Assembly: GCA_016186235.1 (NCBI GenBank)
Contig: JACPMD010000109.1
Location: forward strand, 1 to 5,848
From: Candidatus Roizmanbacteria bacterium
GTDB lineage: Bacteria; Patescibacteriota; Microgenomatia; UBA1406; GWC2-37-13
Length of the DNA stretch: 5,848 bases
Direction of reading: 5' to 3'
Position 1 is the stretch's first letter, and each line of letters begins with the position of its first letter. Position numbers and translations under genes: made by a program. The notes beneath the pieces are model-generated. The model was given only the letters and a program-made list of their open reading frames with translations. It did not search any database and was not told where the DNA came from. This document shows positions 1 to 5,848 of the stretch, piece by piece.

Positions 1-437
1 ACAATCTCAACCAGAGGAACACCGGATCTATTAAAATCAATGAGTGTATCATCTCCTAAGTGAATTAATTTAGCCGTGTCTTCTTCAAGATGCACACGAT
101 GTATTCGAAACTTCTCTAAGGAACCATTTACTGCGATGGGCTGCTCGTACTGAGAAATCTGAAAACCCTTAGGAAGATCAGGATAAAAATAATGTTTGCG
201 GTCAAACTTTGATATGGAGTTAATATTACAGTTCAAAGCCTTTCCAATGAGAACTGTCCATTCAATAGCCTTTTTATTTGGAACTGGAAGTGCTCCAGGT
301 AATCCTAAACATACTGGGCACACATTTACATTTGGATCCTTAGCAAAATATTGCGCTTCACATCGACAAAACATCTTCGACTTCGTCTGAAGTTCTATAT
401 GGATTTCGAGTCCTATTACGGGTATAAAGTTTTTCAT
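1..437 (-). CDS. gatB: Asp/Glu-tRNA amidotransferase subunit B (GatB), 3' end beyond window
   Basis: GatB is the tRNA-binding and kinase-like subunit of GatCAB. It activates the side-chain carboxylate of Glu-tRNA-Gln (or Asp-tRNA-Asn) with ATP and receives ammonia tunnelled from GatA. About 145 residues are visible of a family length near 480; the remainder lies off the left edge. My translation from the ATG at 437 opens [20 protein letters not shown], matching the family start 'VIGLEVHVQL.TKSKMFC'. The zinc-binding cysteines are present as CxC at residues 24 and 26 and CPVC at 40-43. Family blocks [37 protein letters not shown] and [12 protein letters not shown] follow in order. The start is 10 bp after the gatA stop, with only a weak purine stretch (AGAAAG) in front, so translation is probably coupled to gatA. 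Identification is secure; only completeness is unknown. Confidence 0.96.
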
Positions 438-447
438 AAACTTTCTT

Positions 448-1830
448 TTAAATCTCGGGTTTTGCATTGATTCCTGCTTCTTGTTCATACTGATAACCGA
501 TATTCAAAAGCTTTGCCTCATCAAAATGCTTTCCTATAATCTGAAACCCTATTGGCAATTTATTTTTTGTAAATCCAGCCGGTAGCGCTAATGATGGAAT
601 TCCGGCAAGATTTATAGGCGCAGTAAAAACATCCTCCAAATACGCGGTTAGTGGGTCGTGAGTCTTTTCGCCGATTTTAAAGGGTGGCGTCGGATTCACC
701 GGTCCGATGAGAAAGTCAACTTTCTTGAATGCTTCTGCAAAATCTTTTCGAATCAACGTTCTCATTTTTGTTGCCTTCTTATAATAAGCGTCATAATAAC
801 CGGCAGAAAGCGCAAATGTTCCCAACATAATCCTTCGTTTTGCTTCGGCGCCAAAAAGATCTCTATTGCCTCCATAGCGGATTCCGTCGTACCGCGCGAG
901 ATTAGAACTTGTTTCGCTCGGATTGATTAAGTAGTATGTTGCAATAGCATATTTAGTCATGGGCAGTGAAATAGATATAGCCTTTACTCCAAGTTTCTCA
1001 AAAATTTTTATCGCGCTTTCTACATTCGCTGCCACCTCTTCGTCAACCCCTTCTGTAAAATATTCTTTTGGAACGCCGAGTTTCATGCCTGAGATTTTGT
1101 TATGCAGTCCTTGGGTGTATTTTGGGATTTGTTGAGAACTCGAAGTTGCATCATAAATGTCTCGACCGGCGATAATTTCCAAAACGAGCGCAAGATCCTC
1201 CACGTTTTTTGCCATCGGCCCCACCGTATCGAGCGAGGAGGCAAACGCAATACAGCCGTATCGAGATACTAACCCATAGGTAACTTTTAATCCAGTCACC
1301 GAGCAAAACGAAGCCGGACAGCGAATAGATCCAGCGGTATCTTCGGCGATGCTAAATGTACAAAGATCTGCTACCAGAGCCGCTCCAGATCCTCCGCTTG
1401 AACCTCCCGGCACATATTCGAGATTCCAGGGATTTTTTGTCACGCCAAAGTCAGAGTTTACCGTAGATACGCCGTGTCCCCACGCGTCGCAGTTTGTTTT
1501 GCCGATGAGAACTGCACCAGCGTCTCTAAGTCTTACATATACTGTAGAATCGTACGAAGAAATATGGTGTTCCAGGACTTTTGAAGCTGCGGTTGTTTTT
1601 ATTCCCTTCACGTTGTACGTATCTTTCATGGAAAATGGGATACCAAAAAGTGGCTGGTCCTTTTTTGAGTAATCGATGTTCGGTTTATCAAGTACAGTAA
1701 GATACGCATTTAACATAGGATTTAATTTTTTAATTCTATTTACATAGTACGAGTATAGTTCTTCAGGGCTTATTTTCTTCTCTTGCAGCAATTTTCTCAA
1801 TTCTGTAATCGATTTATAGGAAAGTTCCAT
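448..1830 (-). CDS. gatA: Asp/Glu-tRNA amidotransferase subunit A (GatA)
   Basis: GatA is the glutaminase subunit of GatCAB, an amidase-signature hydrolase that frees ammonia from glutamine for GatB. At 460 residues it is slightly shorter than the usual 480-490. The Ser-cisSer-Lys triad can be placed by motif: Lys69 in GIPFSMKD, cis-Ser144 in [11 protein letters not shown], and nucleophile Ser168 in [10 protein letters not shown]. The spacings of 75 and 24 residues match those I recall for Staphylococcus aureus GatA (79/154/178). Further family blocks are [18 protein letters not shown], the [13 protein letters not shown] substrate region and C-terminal [15 protein letters not shown]. The nucleophile block differs from the common DTGGSIRQPA at two positions. 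The ATG overlaps the gatC stop by one base (TAATG) and has no Shine-Dalgarno sequence, so it probably relies on termination-reinitiation. Confidence 0.96.
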
Positions 1831-2123
1831 TAGAGTATTCGCTTGACTAAAAAATAATTTTTTCCATTCTTATTTACGATTTTGAGGTGCTTCAGCTCTT
1901 TTATCTTTTGTTTATTACTCGCTTCGTCATGACGTGAAACATTCTCGAGTCCTGCTGTGGAAGAAGTCGACGGGATATTCGAAGTATCAACTTCATTGAG
2001 TTGATCAACATATTCAAGAATAGAGGTCAATTGTTTACTGTAGGTATTGAGCTCTCCCCTGCTGAGCTTCAAATTTGCCAACTTTGCGAGGCGTTTTACA
2101 TCTTCTTCAGATATTTTTTTCAT
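1830..2123 (-). CDS. gatC: Asp/Glu-tRNA amidotransferase subunit C (GatC)
   Basis: GatC is the small subunit that wraps around GatA and GatB and stabilises the heterotrimer; it has no catalytic role. Its 97 residues match the family's usual 90-100. The N-terminal helical region (ISEEDVKRLAKLANLKLS, residues 4-21, then QLTSILEYVDQLNEVDTSNI) is the GatC signature, followed by the extended segment TAGLENVSRHDE and a C-terminal tail ending KRIL. The tail looks like the family ending 'F.V.KIL' but is lysine-rich, and the usual proline-containing 'P' box before it is replaced by LKIVNKNGKNYFLV. The ATG lies 2 bp after the asnS stop with no Shine-Dalgarno sequence. The order asnS-gatC-gatA-gatB with these tiny gaps implies one transcript. 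Confidence 0.93.
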   Translation of the reverse strand: MKKISEEDVKRLAKLANLKLSRGELNTYSKQLTSILEYVDQLNEVDTSNIPSTSSTAGLENVSRHDEASNKQKIKELKHLKIVNKNGKNYFLVKRIL

Positions 2124-2125
2124 GA

Positions 2126-3421
2126 TTAAGGCGAAAATCTTTCTAACATTCTGGGGAAAGGAATCGTTTCTCGAACATGAGGCAATTTACATATCCATGC
2201 TACGAGTCGCTCCAGTCCAACTCCAAATCCGCTGTGAGGAACGCTGCCATATTTACGAAGATCTAAGTACCATTCATAGTCCTTCATATCAATTTTCCTT
2301 TTTTTGATCTCGGAAACCAACGTATTATAGTCCCATTCTCTTTCTCCCCCGCCTATCACCTCTCCATATCCCTCTGGCGCCAAAAGATCAGAGGAAAGTG
2401 CATATGTTTCATCTTCTGAGTCTCTTTTTACATAAAAAGCTTTAACATCCGCAGGATAGTGTGTAACAAACACAGGCGTTTTAAAGTGATTCATAAGTAT
2501 GGTTTCGTCATCATTGCCAAAATCGCTCCCCAGTTCAATATCCGAACCTAGCGTATTCAAGAGTTTCACTGCTTCTTTATAGGTCATTCTTGGAAATGGA
2601 GTTTTAAACGATTTTAATGGCGATGCGTCTCTTTCAATAATCTTAAGCTCTTTTTCACACGTACTAAGAACATGTTCTATAACATAATAGATCAGATCTT
2701 CCTCAATTTTAAGAATGCCTTCAAAGTCAACAAAAGCAGCTTCTGCGTCCATCATCCAAAATTCGGTGAGGTGTCTTCGAGTTTTTGATTTTTCGGCACG
2801 TAGCACTGGACCGAAATCATAACATCTTCCCACTGATGCTATACTTGCCTCCAAATACAGCTGTCCTGATTGAGAAAGATATGCTTTTTCCCCGAAATAA
2901 TCAATTTCAAAAAGCGTCGTCGTCCCCTCACATGCAGAGGGTGTAATTATGGGACTATCAACTCTGACAAAGTCATTTTTCTGCAGAAATTCATTTATGC
3001 CACGAATCATTTCATTTCTAATCCGGAGTATTGCCCACTGCCTTTTGCTTCTCAGCCATAGATGCCTATTACTCAAGAGAAAATCAGGCCCATGTTCTTT
3101 TTTCCCAATCGGAAATTCATCTGCAAGCTGAATAATTTTGAGATCTTTTACTGTTAATTCATAGCCGTCCGGAGCTCGCTTATCTTCTCTTAAAAGCCCT
3201 ATTACTTCAACGGAGGATTCGAGGGTTACTTTATCTGCCGCAGCAAAAACCTCTGGGTTAACTTCACTTTTCACAACTGTCGCCTGGATAAATCCGGATC
3301 CATCTCTTACTTGAAGAAAATGAATCGACCCACTCGATCGCTTATTATATATCCAACCTTTTACTATTACCTCCTTGCCAACAAATTTTTCAGAATCTTT
3401 AATAAAAAAAGAAGATTTCAT
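2126..3421 (-). CDS. asnS: Asparaginyl-tRNA synthetase, compact class IIb type
   Basis: This enzyme ligates asparagine to tRNA-Asn in the cytoplasm using ATP. An N-terminal OB-fold anticodon-binding domain spans about residues 1-105 (VIVKGWIYNKRSSGSIHFLQVRDGSG), followed by the class II catalytic core. Motif 2 has Arg208 and Glu210 in FGPVLRAEKSKTRRHLTEFWMMDAE. Motif 3 is GFGVGLERLV at 398-407. ACEGTTTLFEI, YFGEKAYLSQSGQLYLEA and SSDLLAPEGYGEVIGGGEREWDY identify AsnRS rather than AspRS; archaeal AspRS carries 'SFDL..RG.EI.SGAQR' at the last place. At 431 residues it matches the compact Thermus/archaeal-like AsnRS rather than the longer E. coli form of about 466. The ATG is supported by the immediate OB-fold start and by a TATAAT 6 nt upstream. 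It starts 20 bp after the asnB stop and needs the asparagine that AsnB would supply. Confidence 0.94.
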   Translation of the reverse strand: MKSSFFIKDSEKFVGKEVIVKGWIYNKRSSGSIHFLQVRDGSGFIQATVVKSEVNPEVFAAADKVTLESSVEVIGLLREDKRAPDGYELTVKDLKIIQLADEFPIGKKEHGPDFLLSNRHLWLRSKRQWAILRIRNEMIRGINEFLQKNDFVRVDSPIITPSACEGTTTLFEIDYFGEKAYLSQSGQLYLEASIASVGRCYDFGPVLRAEKSKTRRHLTEFWMMDAEAAFVDFEGILKIEEDLIYYVIEHVLSTCEKELKIIERDASPLKSFKTPFPRMTYKEAVKLLNTLGSDIELGSDFGNDDETILMNHFKTPVFVTHYPADVKAFYVKRDSEDETYALSSDLLAPEGYGEVIGGGEREWDYNTLVSEIKKRKIDMKDYEWYLDLRKYGSVPHSGFGVGLERLVAWICKLPHVRETIPFPRMLERFSP

Positions 3422-3441: not shown

Positions 3442-5848
3442 TTATTCAAAAACTAAGACCACTGGAGTCTGTTCATCCGCTTGACCCATTGGATTATCAG
3501 AAAATATTTTTTCGATAAGATTGTTTGAGAGACTCGTCGAATTGCCCAAAACTTTTTGGCCTAAATCATTCGCATCTATGATTACAGTACCTAAGAAATA
3601 GTCTTTTGGGATTTGTGAGCTTGACAATATTTTTTCTCGCATTTGTTCGGCTATCTTCTCTGGATTCTTTGGCCCTAATTTTGCTGATACGTTTGAAGGA
3701 TACAGAGAATATTCTGTCGGTCCATCAATCGAAGCAACTTCTCTTCCAGCAATCTTATAAAATATGCCTTTCAATCCAATGGGCTTTGTTAAAAAAGCCA
3801 TAATTGACGCAAGTAAAATTTTTCCTAAGCCCACTTCTTCTATAGCAAGCTGCATCGTCCATGGGCTACCAAGGCCTATCCCATAGGGAGTTTTGCTGAC
3901 AAACTTTGAAAGTAACGTCGCTAAAAAACTTGGCTTGATATCCCAAATAAAATACGACCTGCCTTGCGTAATGGCGACTATTTTTTCGGAAATCACAATA
4001 AAGAATCTTTTAGTATTCATCTCGTTCCCCAATGTCTGTACGGCTGGGATTAGATGTCTTCTCACTTTTTCTTCAATGCTATCTCCTTTTTGAAACAGTT
4101 CTGTTCTGATGGGGTATCTTCTATATTCCTTCTTTTCTACTTTTATAATTAATTTTTTTCCCTCATTCGGCTCTCCTAACTTTCTAGAACGTAAAGCCTT
4201 TGACGTACTGGCAGATTTTTTATCAAAAAATACTCTCATCCACATCTCAAGATTCAAAAGCCTCCAGAAAATCATTGTATCTTCGACTTTTCCCTCTATA
4301 AACTCTTGAAATGCTTTCAATACTTCCTGCTGGTTGAAGTACTTTCGTTTTGCAAATGACTCGCTTAAAAAAATGGAATAAATCTTATTTTTCATCCGCA
4401 TGAACCACTCGTATTCTGGTGTTGTAAATCCAATTTTATCTCTCCGTTCAAGAATAGTGACTGGAAGCAAATCTTTAATAGCTTCTCGAAGAATATATTT
4501 ATTCCATCCATTTTTAATAATTGCTTCGTCTGGCAAACTAAAAAGATACTGAAGGAGAGTAAAATCTAAAAAGGGCACTCTGCCCTCGATAGAGAATCGC
4601 ATGCTGTTTTTATCTTCATAACGAAGAAGTGACTGGAGACTGTTACGAAATATGTCTTCAACTAATCGTTTCTTAAGATTATCACGGGTTATGATAAACG
4701 ATTCGGTTTTAAATTTCGCATTGAATTTGTTGTGTAAAAGATTCTCCGAATTAATATTTTTTTTAATTCCAGTAATGAGCAGCAATTTTTGTAGGAAGTA
4801 TTTACCAATCACATCTCGAGAAGACCATAGTTCCCTAATGAGTTTGCTATAATACTTTTCTTTTTTAAGCTGTCTCAAATAAACAAAATAGTAAGGCAGG
4901 TATCCTGCCATCATCTCATCCGATCCCTGTCCGTCTAACACAACTGTTACGTGTTTATGGGCTTCCTCCATTACTTTATACTGTGCGTATGGCCCAGTAC
5001 TAATAGTCGGCTCTTCCTGTGTTTTTACAAACTCTTCGAGTTCCTTGAAGAATTCTTCAGGTTTTGGATTGACTTTGTGACTTTTAACTTTTATTTTTTG
5101 AATAACCGCGTCGACATATTTCTCCTCATCGTTCGATCCTCCAGGAAACACAGCCGAAAAAGTATCTTGAATTTTCCCAACAGATTTTGCTTCTGAAACG
5201 CGCTCATAAAGAAGTTTATTTATTACAGAGACTACCGTCGAGGAGTCGAGTCCTCCAGACAAACACGTTCCAACTGGAACTTCGGATATTAACCTCAGTT
5301 TTACTGCCTCAATGATTCTTTTTCTAAATGCAGTAATTTCATTATCAGTTATAGTTCGAGCACGTTCACTTTGTTCAGTGTGAACGTGTCGAGAACTTTC
5401 TTTTAACTCTTCTTCCAACTCCGTAAATTTTTTTATTTGCACTTTGTCTTTTTGTATTAGCGCTATCTCTCCTGGCATCAATCGTTGTATACCTCCAAAG
5501 AAGGTTTCTTTTTGATCGTCGTGAATGCGAAACTTAAGATACCGGTAAATGATTCGATCATTTGGCTTTTTTTGTACTAAGCCAGAATTGATGATCGGTC
5601 TAATTTCCGAGGAAAATATCAAACGCTTACCGATTAGGGCGTAATAGAGAGGTTTTATGCCGAAATGATCTCTCGTTAATATCAACTTTTCTTTTCTCGT
5701 ATCATACAACGCGACGGCAAACATACCATTAAATCGATCAAAACAGTTGTCCCCCCACTCTTCGTATCCATGTACAATCACCTCTGTATCTGAGAGCGTC
5801 TTAAACTGATGCTTTTTCTTCTCTAACAAGATTCTTAGCTCTCTGTAA
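3442..5848 (-). CDS. asnB: Asparagine synthetase B fused to a CofE-like ligase domain, 5' end beyond window
   Basis: Glutamine-hydrolysing asparagine synthetase converts aspartate, glutamine and ATP to asparagine. The frame is open to the right edge, so the true start, including catalytic Cys2, is off-window; the TTG at 5829 is internal because family residues (YRELRI) precede it. Of 801 visible residues, about 1-130 are the class II glutaminase domain (SDTEVIVHGYEEWG, FGIKPLYY at 62-69). A charged linker follows, then the synthetase domain: ATP pyrophosphatase motif SGGLDSS at 197-203, LDGQGSDE at 304-311, and SMRFSIEGRVPFLD from 415. Residues about 561-801 are a CofE-like domain (F420-0:gamma-glutamyl ligase family) with SEKIVAITQGR, GIGLGSPW at 656-663, DGPTEYSLYPSN from 708, IIDANDLG near 758 and NPMGQADEQTP from 785. 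The role of CofE-like proteins in such bacteria is unknown to me. The domain join is suspicious (see 4153-4177). AsnB is secure and the CofE-like call is good by motif, but true F420 activity is doubtful. Confidence 0.92.
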   Translation of the reverse strand, partial: YRELRILLEKKKHQFKTLSDTEVIVHGYEEWGDNCFDRFNGMFAVALYDTRKEKLILTRDHFGIKPLYYALIGKRLIFSSEIRPIINSGLVQKKPNDRIIYRYLKFRIHDDQKETFFGGIQRLMPGEIALIQKDKVQIKKFTELEEELKESSRHVHTEQSERARTITDNEITAFRKRIIEAVKLRLISEVPVGTCLSGGLDSSTVVSVINKLLYERVSEAKSVGKIQDTFSAVFPGGSNDEEKYVDAVIQKIKVKSHKVNPKPEEFFKELEEFVKTQEEPTISTGPYAQYKVMEEAHKHVTVVLDGQGSDEMMAGYLPYYFVYLRQLKKEKYYSKLIRELWSSRDVIGKYFLQKLLLITGIKKNINSENLLHNKFNAKFKTESFIITRDNLKKRLVEDIFRNSLQSLLRYEDKNSMRFSIEGRVPFLDFTLLQYLFSLPDEAIIKNGWNKYILREAIKDLLPVTILERRDKIGFTTPEYEWFMRMKNKIYSIFLSESFAKRKYFNQQEVLKAFQEFIEGKVEDTMIFWRLLNLEMWMRVFFDKKSASTSKALRSRKLGEPNEGKKLIIKVEKKEYRRYPIRTELFQKGDSIEEKVRRHLIPAVQTLGNEMNTKRFFIVISEKIVAITQGRSYFIWDIKPSFLATLLSKFVSKTPYGIGLGSPWTMQLAIEEVGLGKILLASIMAFLTKPIGLKGIFYKIAGREVASIDGPTEYSLYPSNVSAKLGPKNPEKIAEQMREKILSSSQIPKDYFLGTVIIDANDLGQKVLGNSTSLSNNLIEKIFSDNPMGQADEQTPVVLVFE
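4153..4159 (-). other. A7 homopolymer, possible indel or frameshift site at the domain junction
   Basis: There are seven consecutive T on the plus strand, read as A7 in the mRNA. With A7 the asnB frame runs on into the CofE-like domain. With A8 the upstream ATG would read MREKKLIIKV and continue through the whole CofE-like domain, while AsnB would end at a TAG about ten codons after the run. In the ATG frame the site reads A AAA AAT followed directly by TAA. That is an X XXY YYZ slippery heptamer at which a -1 shift would also enter the CofE-like frame. Confidence 0.55.
4164..4177 (-). promoter_or_regulatory. Shine-Dalgarno plus out-of-frame ATG at the AsnB/CofE-like junction
   Basis: On the minus strand, AGGAG (4177-4173) is followed after 6 nt by ATG (4166-4164). 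It is the only strong Shine-Dalgarno/start pairing I found in this window; the starts of asnS, gatC, gatA and gatB lack one. The ATG is not in the asnB frame and reads only five codons (MREKN) before TAA. It sits exactly where a free-standing CofE-like protein would begin. It may be a vestigial or active start. By chance, AGGAG could also arise from the Leu-Gly-Glu codons it overlaps. Confidence 0.5.
5361..5388. repeat. Inverted repeat in the asnB interdomain linker
   Basis: CACGTTCAC (5361-5369) and GTGAACGTG (5380-5388) form a perfect 9-bp inverted repeat around a 10-nt loop. TCGA-containing flanks on both sides extend the symmetry imperfectly, with small bulges. It lies inside asnB and encodes part of the linker (around SRHVHTEQSERAR) between the glutaminase and synthetase domains. 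It is not a terminator, since no U-tract follows. Confidence 0.7.

What the first reader, a model, noticed from the sequence alone, without database searches (positions are those of the whole stretch)
4153..4177. Junction carries a ready-made start site one base out of frame: AGGAG-N6-ATG then A7
At the domain boundary the minus strand has a strong Shine-Dalgarno sequence and an ATG that misses the CofE-like frame by exactly one base, with the homopolymer in between. Adding one A gives MREKKLIIKV, a natural N-terminus for the CofE-like protein, and a stop for AsnB shortly after. This looks like two formerly overlapping genes joined by a one-base deletion, or a sequencing error that mimics that. 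A third option is a biological switch: -1 slippage at A AAA AAT before TAA, or RNA polymerase slippage on A7, could yield both fused and free forms.
Basis: partly seen in the sequence, partly recalled or inferred. Interest (0 to 1): 0.72.

Follow-up and report, generated by a model that had tools for sequence, protein, structure and literature searches.

The report
Old AsnB–CofE-like gene fusion junction
The apparent "ready-made start site" is likely a coincidence of codons inside one continuous gene, which joins an asparagine-synthetase-like enzyme to a CofE-like domain and has the same fused layout in dozens of related bacteria.

Summary
The reported sequence is there: minus strand AGGAG (4177-4173), six bases, ATG (4166-4164), AGGG, A7 (4159-4153). 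That ATG reads only M-R-E-K-N-stop. In the main frame these bases encode Pro-Asn-Glu-Gly-Lys-Lys, a conserved motif opening the CofE-like domain: AAT|GAG makes the ATG, GGA-AAA-AAA the A7. Relatives carry the same in-frame fusion: the 119 other listed best protein hits, and 36 of 81 distinct loci, against 8 adjacent separate pairs. Of 34 fused loci aligned at the motif, 13 have the out-of-frame ATG but only 2 (window included) a strong Shine-Dalgarno before it. In 33 of 34 unfused copies with the Asn aligned, an in-frame ATG lies upstream of it, so MREKKLIIKV is unlikely to be the natural N-terminus. Two trees put the fused copies on one well-supported branch. Adjacent or overlapping gene pairs exist in distant relatives, so the fusion is likely old, not a recent one-base deletion, sequencing error or slippage switch. 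What remains of interest is the fused enzyme, often near GatCAB genes, in a family without CofD or CofH above cut-off.

The parts
3442..5847 (-). One open reading frame, 801 codons, AsnB-like plus CofE-like; its 5' end is cut by the contig edge
   Evidence: Pfam PF13537, PF00733, PF01996 in order; the window is the whole contig C99 of the genome
4222..5847 (-). Asparagine-synthetase (AsnB) part, ends ...LEMWMRVFFD
   Evidence: TIGR01536 337.9 bits against cut-off 267.1; tblastn boundaries in relatives
4171..4221 (-). Variable linker (KKSASTSKALRSRKLGE)
   Evidence: the motif lies 18-41 residues after the conserved Trp-Leu/Met at the AsnB end in 79 fused proteins, window included; pLDDT about 63, under 50 at residues 547-551, in the fused model
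4153..4170 (-). Codons of the conserved PNEGKK motif that opens the CofE-like domain; contains the out-of-frame ATG and the A7
   Evidence: the Asn and first Lys at 90% or more in 62 aligned proteins; table of codons
4173..4177 (-). AGGAG (Shine-Dalgarno-like), part of the Leu-Gly-Glu codons of the linker
   Evidence: strong SD before the ATG in 2 of 34 fused loci
4149..4166 (-). Out-of-frame ATG mini-frame MREKN-stop
4153..4159 (-). A7 run: last A of Gly GGA plus Lys AAA Lys AAA
   Evidence: A run of 7 or more in 7 of 34 fused loci
3445..4131 (-). Part of the CofE-like domain that matches the solved CofE fold
2126..3421 (-). Asparaginyl-tRNA synthetase-like gene downstream
   Evidence: PF00152 and PF01336, which are shared with the Asp and Lys enzymes; the choice of Asn is my reading
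1830..2123 (-). gatC
   Evidence: PF02686
448..1830 (-). gatA
   Evidence: PF01425; beside gatC and gatB in relatives
3..488 (-). gatB, cut by the contig edge
   Evidence: ORF; homologous gene after gatA in relatives; named by sequence reading, not scanned with Pfam here

Best explanation
The junction lies inside one continuous gene, conserved in relatives, that joins an AsnB-type asparagine synthetase to a CofE-like domain, and the AGGAG-ATG-A7 pattern is likely a chance by-product of linker codons next to a conserved Pro-Asn-x-Gly-Lys motif. Ribosomes are expected to read straight through and make one two-domain protein (inferred; no expression data). Shown by the calls: the shared fused frame, the motif, the variable linker, the poor conservation of the Shine-Dalgarno, and in-frame ATGs upstream of the motif in unfused copies. 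Inferred: the fusion arose once, long before this species, from neighbouring genes of the kind still seen as adjacent pairs, and four relatives later kept only the CofE-like half. Predicted function: an AsnB-type amide synthetase tied to a CofE-fold, nucleotide-dependent ligase that does not serve F420, most likely two amide-forming steps of one nitrogen or amino-acid pathway; the substrate is unknown. The confidence given is for the junction reading; the function guess alone is about 0.35.
For: Fusion conserved: the 119 other proteins in the listed best 120 (of 5758 hits, from a capped candidate set) cover 99-100% of the fused query (a fused query favours such hits). Of 42 family genomes with a match, 35 look fused by frame length or context (one of them, G032, broken within CofE), 2 are adjacent pairs, 4 are free without AsnB, 1 is a fragment (for G005, G009, G035, G042, G043 and G057 from frame length alone). 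81 distinct loci: 36 fused, 8 adjacent pairs, 1 fused gene broken within CofE (L078, labelled split in the script), 34 free, 2 cut. Motif: the Asn and first Lys at 90% or more in 62 proteins. Codons: 34 of 36 fused loci aligned at the Asn column, 25 with Asn, 13 with the out-of-frame ATG, 2 with a strong SD before it, 7 with an A run of 7 or more. Unfused copies: in 33 of 34 with Asn at that column (28 solo, 6 paired; L078 left out) the nearest in-frame ATG lies 2-12 codons upstream; L068 and L108 keep the same AATGAG inside the motif and still have an upstream ATG. No in-frame ATG/GTG/TTG in the window's linker. Trees: the CofE-like tree has all 35 fused rows plus 4 nested free rows on one 100/100 branch (77 rows); the AsnB tree has all 33 fused rows on one 100/95 branch and 8 paired rows outside.
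Against: The complete SD-ATG-A7 trio is uncommon: 3.5% under codon resampling and one case in 59 sampled ORFs; the ORF has more SD-ATG sites than resampling expects (4 against 1.3). L009 also has AGGAG (10 nt) before its ATG. The nearest relative found is only 67% identical in the domain, so conservation within the species or genus could not be tested. Six fused loci, window included, have an in-frame A-AAA-AAR heptamer. 11 of 36 fused loci lack Asn at the aligned column or are unaligned there, and several clearly lack the motif; among the unfused ones counted, L056, L061 and L071 have Asn but no clear motif. There are no reads, RNA or protein data.
Confidence: 0.92

Rival explanations
1. A recent one-base deletion, or a sequencing error, in an A8 run has fused two overlapping genes in this genome only.
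For: Adding one A gives the ATG the CofE-like frame; overlapping pairs exist in distant relatives (L105, L067).
Against: Relatives are fused in frame too; the A7 frame spells the conserved motif exactly, which another A would shift out of the AsnB frame; unfused copies have their ATG upstream of it.
Confidence: 0.02
2. A biological switch: ribosomal -1 slippage or RNA polymerase slippage on the A run yields both fused and free forms.
For: In-frame A-AAA-AAA heptamer in the window; A-AAA-AAR in 5 others of the 34 aligned fused loci; AGGAG lies 13 nt upstream of the run, roughly like dnaX (recalled).
Against: The heptamer is missing in 28 of 34; many relatives use AAG or other codons. RNA folding is weak: z -0.72 for the first 53 nt after the run, -1.42 for 83 nt, and -1.73 for 101 nt including the run, with 45, 19 and 9 of 200 shuffles as stable. 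A product starting at the ATG would lack the conserved Pro-Asn.
Confidence: 0.03
3. The out-of-frame start is used to translate the short peptide MREKN and affects translation of the fused message locally.
For: AGGAG with 6-nt spacing is a good ribosome-binding site by consensus.
Against: A strong SD before the ATG in only 2 of 34 fused loci; such out-of-frame sites occur in 10 of 59 sampled ORFs of the genome.
Confidence: 0.03

Closest known systems
AsnB, glutamine-hydrolysing asparagine synthase (TIGR01536, PF00733)
   Same: Above the NCBIfam cut-off; SGGLDSS loop present; aligned relatives begin MCGIAGF
   Different: Carries a C-terminal CofE-like domain of about 240 residues after a variable linker
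CofE, coenzyme F420-0:L-glutamate ligase (PF01996; solved 2phn, 2g9i, 7uld)
   Different: 14-22% identity in the structural alignments; extra N-terminal PNxGK segment; no NCBIfam match for the domain alone; CofD and CofH above cut-off in 0 of 72 family genomes
FbiB, mycobacterial two-domain F420 ligase
   Same: A CofE-type domain joined to another domain (PMC10861534, section 8 read)
   Different: There the CofE-like part is N-terminal; here it is C-terminal, behind an AsnB

Membership tests
AsnB asparagine synthase | Score above the curated family cut-off | tested here: met
   TIGR01536 337.9 bits against 267.1
AsnB asparagine synthase | N-terminal nucleophile Cys2 | tested here: inconclusive
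   cut off in the window by the contig edge; M, C and I of MCGI at 90% or more in the aligned set
AsnB asparagine synthase | Synthetase PP-loop SGGxDS | tested here: met
   SGGLDSS in the ORF; S, G, G, D, S, S invariant in 57 proteins
CofE F420 gamma-glutamyl ligase | CofE fold | tested here: met
CofE F420 gamma-glutamyl ligase | Pfam F420_ligase above cut-off | tested here: met
   29.2 bits (whole ORF) and 35.4 bits (domain) against 25
CofE F420 gamma-glutamyl ligase | Occurs with the F420 pathway | tested here: not met
   CofD above cut-off in 0 of 72 and CofH in 0 of 72 family genomes; weak matches far below cut-off in 61 and 4 of 72; each search rang over the cut-off in 3 of 14 control genomes
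CofE F420 gamma-glutamyl ligase | GTP, Mn and glutamate contacts of CofE | not tested
   no residue-by-residue superposition was made
Programmed -1 frameshift site | Slippery heptamer conserved among homologues | tested here: not met
   6 of 34 fused loci, window included
Programmed -1 frameshift site | Stable RNA structure just downstream | tested here: not met
   z -0.72 for the first 53 nt; -1.42 and -1.73 for longer pieces
Overlapping gene pair with coupled start | Upstream gene stops at the junction | tested here: not met
   frame open through the junction in the window and in 35 other fused loci

The most novel reading that the evidence does not exclude
The fusion is an undescribed two-step amide-forming enzyme: the AsnB half makes an amide and the CofE-like half, using a nucleotide, ligates glutamate or another amino acid to a partner that is not F420, giving a conjugate unknown in these reduced bacteria and feeding from or into the nearby GatCAB and glutamine synthetase genes.
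Probability: 0.25. Interest if true: 0.55.

Novelty: new variant of a known kind. Interest (0 to 1): 0.2.

Why it matters
As a start site or switch it likely does not matter: it shows how AAT-GAG plus lysine codons in an AT-rich gene can imitate a ribosome-binding site, start and slippery run at a domain boundary. The novelty grade is for the fused enzyme, not for the start site. The enzyme matters a little more: proteins whose given names say only 'asparagine synthase' carry a CofE-like domain of unknown use in bacteria without recognisable CofD or CofH.

Tried and rejected
Recent frame change, sequencing error and slippage were considered and rejected as above. A conserved in-frame internal start in the linker: 5 of 36 fused loci have an in-frame ATG there and 6 have some in-frame start with an SD-like word of 4-6 bases; the window has none. 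Sequence search of solved structures with the CofE-like domain alone and with its profile found nothing; the fold search did. Neighbours of free CofE-like genes (10 proteins from 6 loci) were mixed (DUF5667, RNase Y, HU, transglycosylase-like, O-antigen ligase, VanW, ATPase, glycosyltransferase, GlmS-like, one without a family) and gave no function. Paper searches: (listings only; PMC10861534 was searched by term and its section 8 read; nothing else was opened). No title listed there is about an AsnB-CofE fusion; one search listed 10 of 16 papers and 8 of 10, and the library lacks most subscription journals. A first motif finder mis-picked some loci (for example L003) and was replaced by the alignment-based table. 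In one search the domain-end pattern failed for all loci, so the region scanned there was -90 to +30 of the CofE match (2 of 34 loci with a strong SD before an ATG). L078, labelled split, is a fused gene broken inside CofE; it was not mended and was too short for the CofE tree. One search used 77 of 81 rows (short domains dropped); one search used 41 rows (AsnB pieces that were short or held stops dropped; L078 counted there as fused). In one search, of 120 proteins 3 lacked the AsnB end pattern, 37 of the other 117 did not match the motif pattern, and one of the 80 matches (offset 7) was discarded as false. In one search, L045 and L062 end at a contig edge and were left out of the gatA count.

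Full report
What is in the sequence. The window is a whole 5,848-base contig of an 820-kb, 162-contig, 80%-complete assembly; many of its named relatives are labelled Candidatus Roizmanbacteria. On the minus strand one frame runs from the contig edge (5847) to 3442 and encodes an asparagine synthetase followed by a CofE-like domain. The reported AGGAG-N6-ATG and A7 are exactly at 4177-4153. The ATG is one base out of the CofE-like frame and its own frame stops after five codons.

Why the pattern is there. In the reading frame the bases spell Gly-Glu-Pro-Asn-Glu-Gly-Lys-Lys. The Asn and the first Lys are at 90% or more in an alignment of the window with 61 other CofE-like proteins chosen from the 120 listed. 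AAT followed by GAG gives an out-of-frame ATG; GGA AAA AAA gives seven A. In 34 fused loci that align at the Asn column (of 36), Asn is present in 25, the out-of-frame ATG in 13, a strong Shine-Dalgarno in front of it in 2 (window and L009), an A run of 7 or more in 7, and an in-frame slippery heptamer in 6. The motif stands 18 to 41 residues after the conserved Trp-Leu/Met of the AsnB end in 79 fused proteins, so the linker varies. With the protein held fixed and codons drawn from the same ORF, a strong SD before an out-of-frame ATG appears in 12.5% of draws, and together with A7 in 3.5%. Against this reading, the full trio occurs once in 59 sampled ORFs of the genome, here, and 11 of the 36 fused loci have no Asn at the aligned column.

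Fused, paired and free relatives. The 119 other proteins among the best 120 listed hits are full-length fusions, though a fused query favours them. In the window's family 42 of 72 genomes have the CofE-like domain; in a phylum sample 26 of 379. Among 81 distinct loci, 36 are fused, 8 are adjacent separate genes (L059, L067, L068, L073, L074, L105, L116, L125), one is a fused gene broken in its CofE part (L078), 34 are free and 2 are cut. In L105 the AsnB stop and the CofE-like start share ATGA; in L067 they overlap by 25 nt if its ATG is the start. In 33 of 34 free or paired copies with Asn at the aligned column, the nearest in-frame ATG lies 2-12 codons upstream of it (starts are inferred from the frames). 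L066 is the exception and appears to lack the motif.

History. A tree of 77 CofE-like domains has one 100/100 branch with all 35 fused rows and four free ones nested within; the genomes of those four (84-98% complete) have no AsnB match. A tree of 41 AsnB parts puts all 33 fused rows on one 100/95 branch, with the 8 paired rows outside and L105 nearest (L105 is a long branch and the bootstrap had not settled). The simplest reading is one old fusion of neighbouring genes and a later loss of the AsnB half in one group; the roots are midpoints, so direction is inferred.

Verdict. Interest is low for the finding and moderate for the uncharacterised fused enzyme.

Noticed in passing
L032-L039, L041, L043, L047, L063, L064, L067, L068, L073, L074: The fused or paired AsnB and CofE-like genes lie upstream of gatA (with gatC and gatB in most). 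In the loci scanned with Pfam, LemA and M48 peptidase genes lie upstream (L034, L067) and a DNA polymerase III alpha gene downstream (L033, L067, L073)..
   Followed up: partly
L034:6673-8085, L064:5759-7117: A glutamine synthetase gene sits between the fused gene and gatC in these two loci; L034 also has an NAD-synthase-like gene.
   Followed up: no
L078 (G032:C19): A fused gene whose CofE-like part is broken by a change of frame; described only.
   Followed up: no
L060:3326-5836: Actinocatenispora rupis has a very diverged fused AsnB-like and CofE-like protein on a long branch.
   Followed up: no
L020, L028, L071, L072: Free CofE-like genes nested in the fused branch, in genomes without an AsnB match: likely loss of the AsnB half.
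   Followed up: partly
window 2126-3421: An asparaginyl-tRNA-synthetase-like gene directly follows the fused gene; among the loci shown only L047 also has one nearby.
   Followed up: partly
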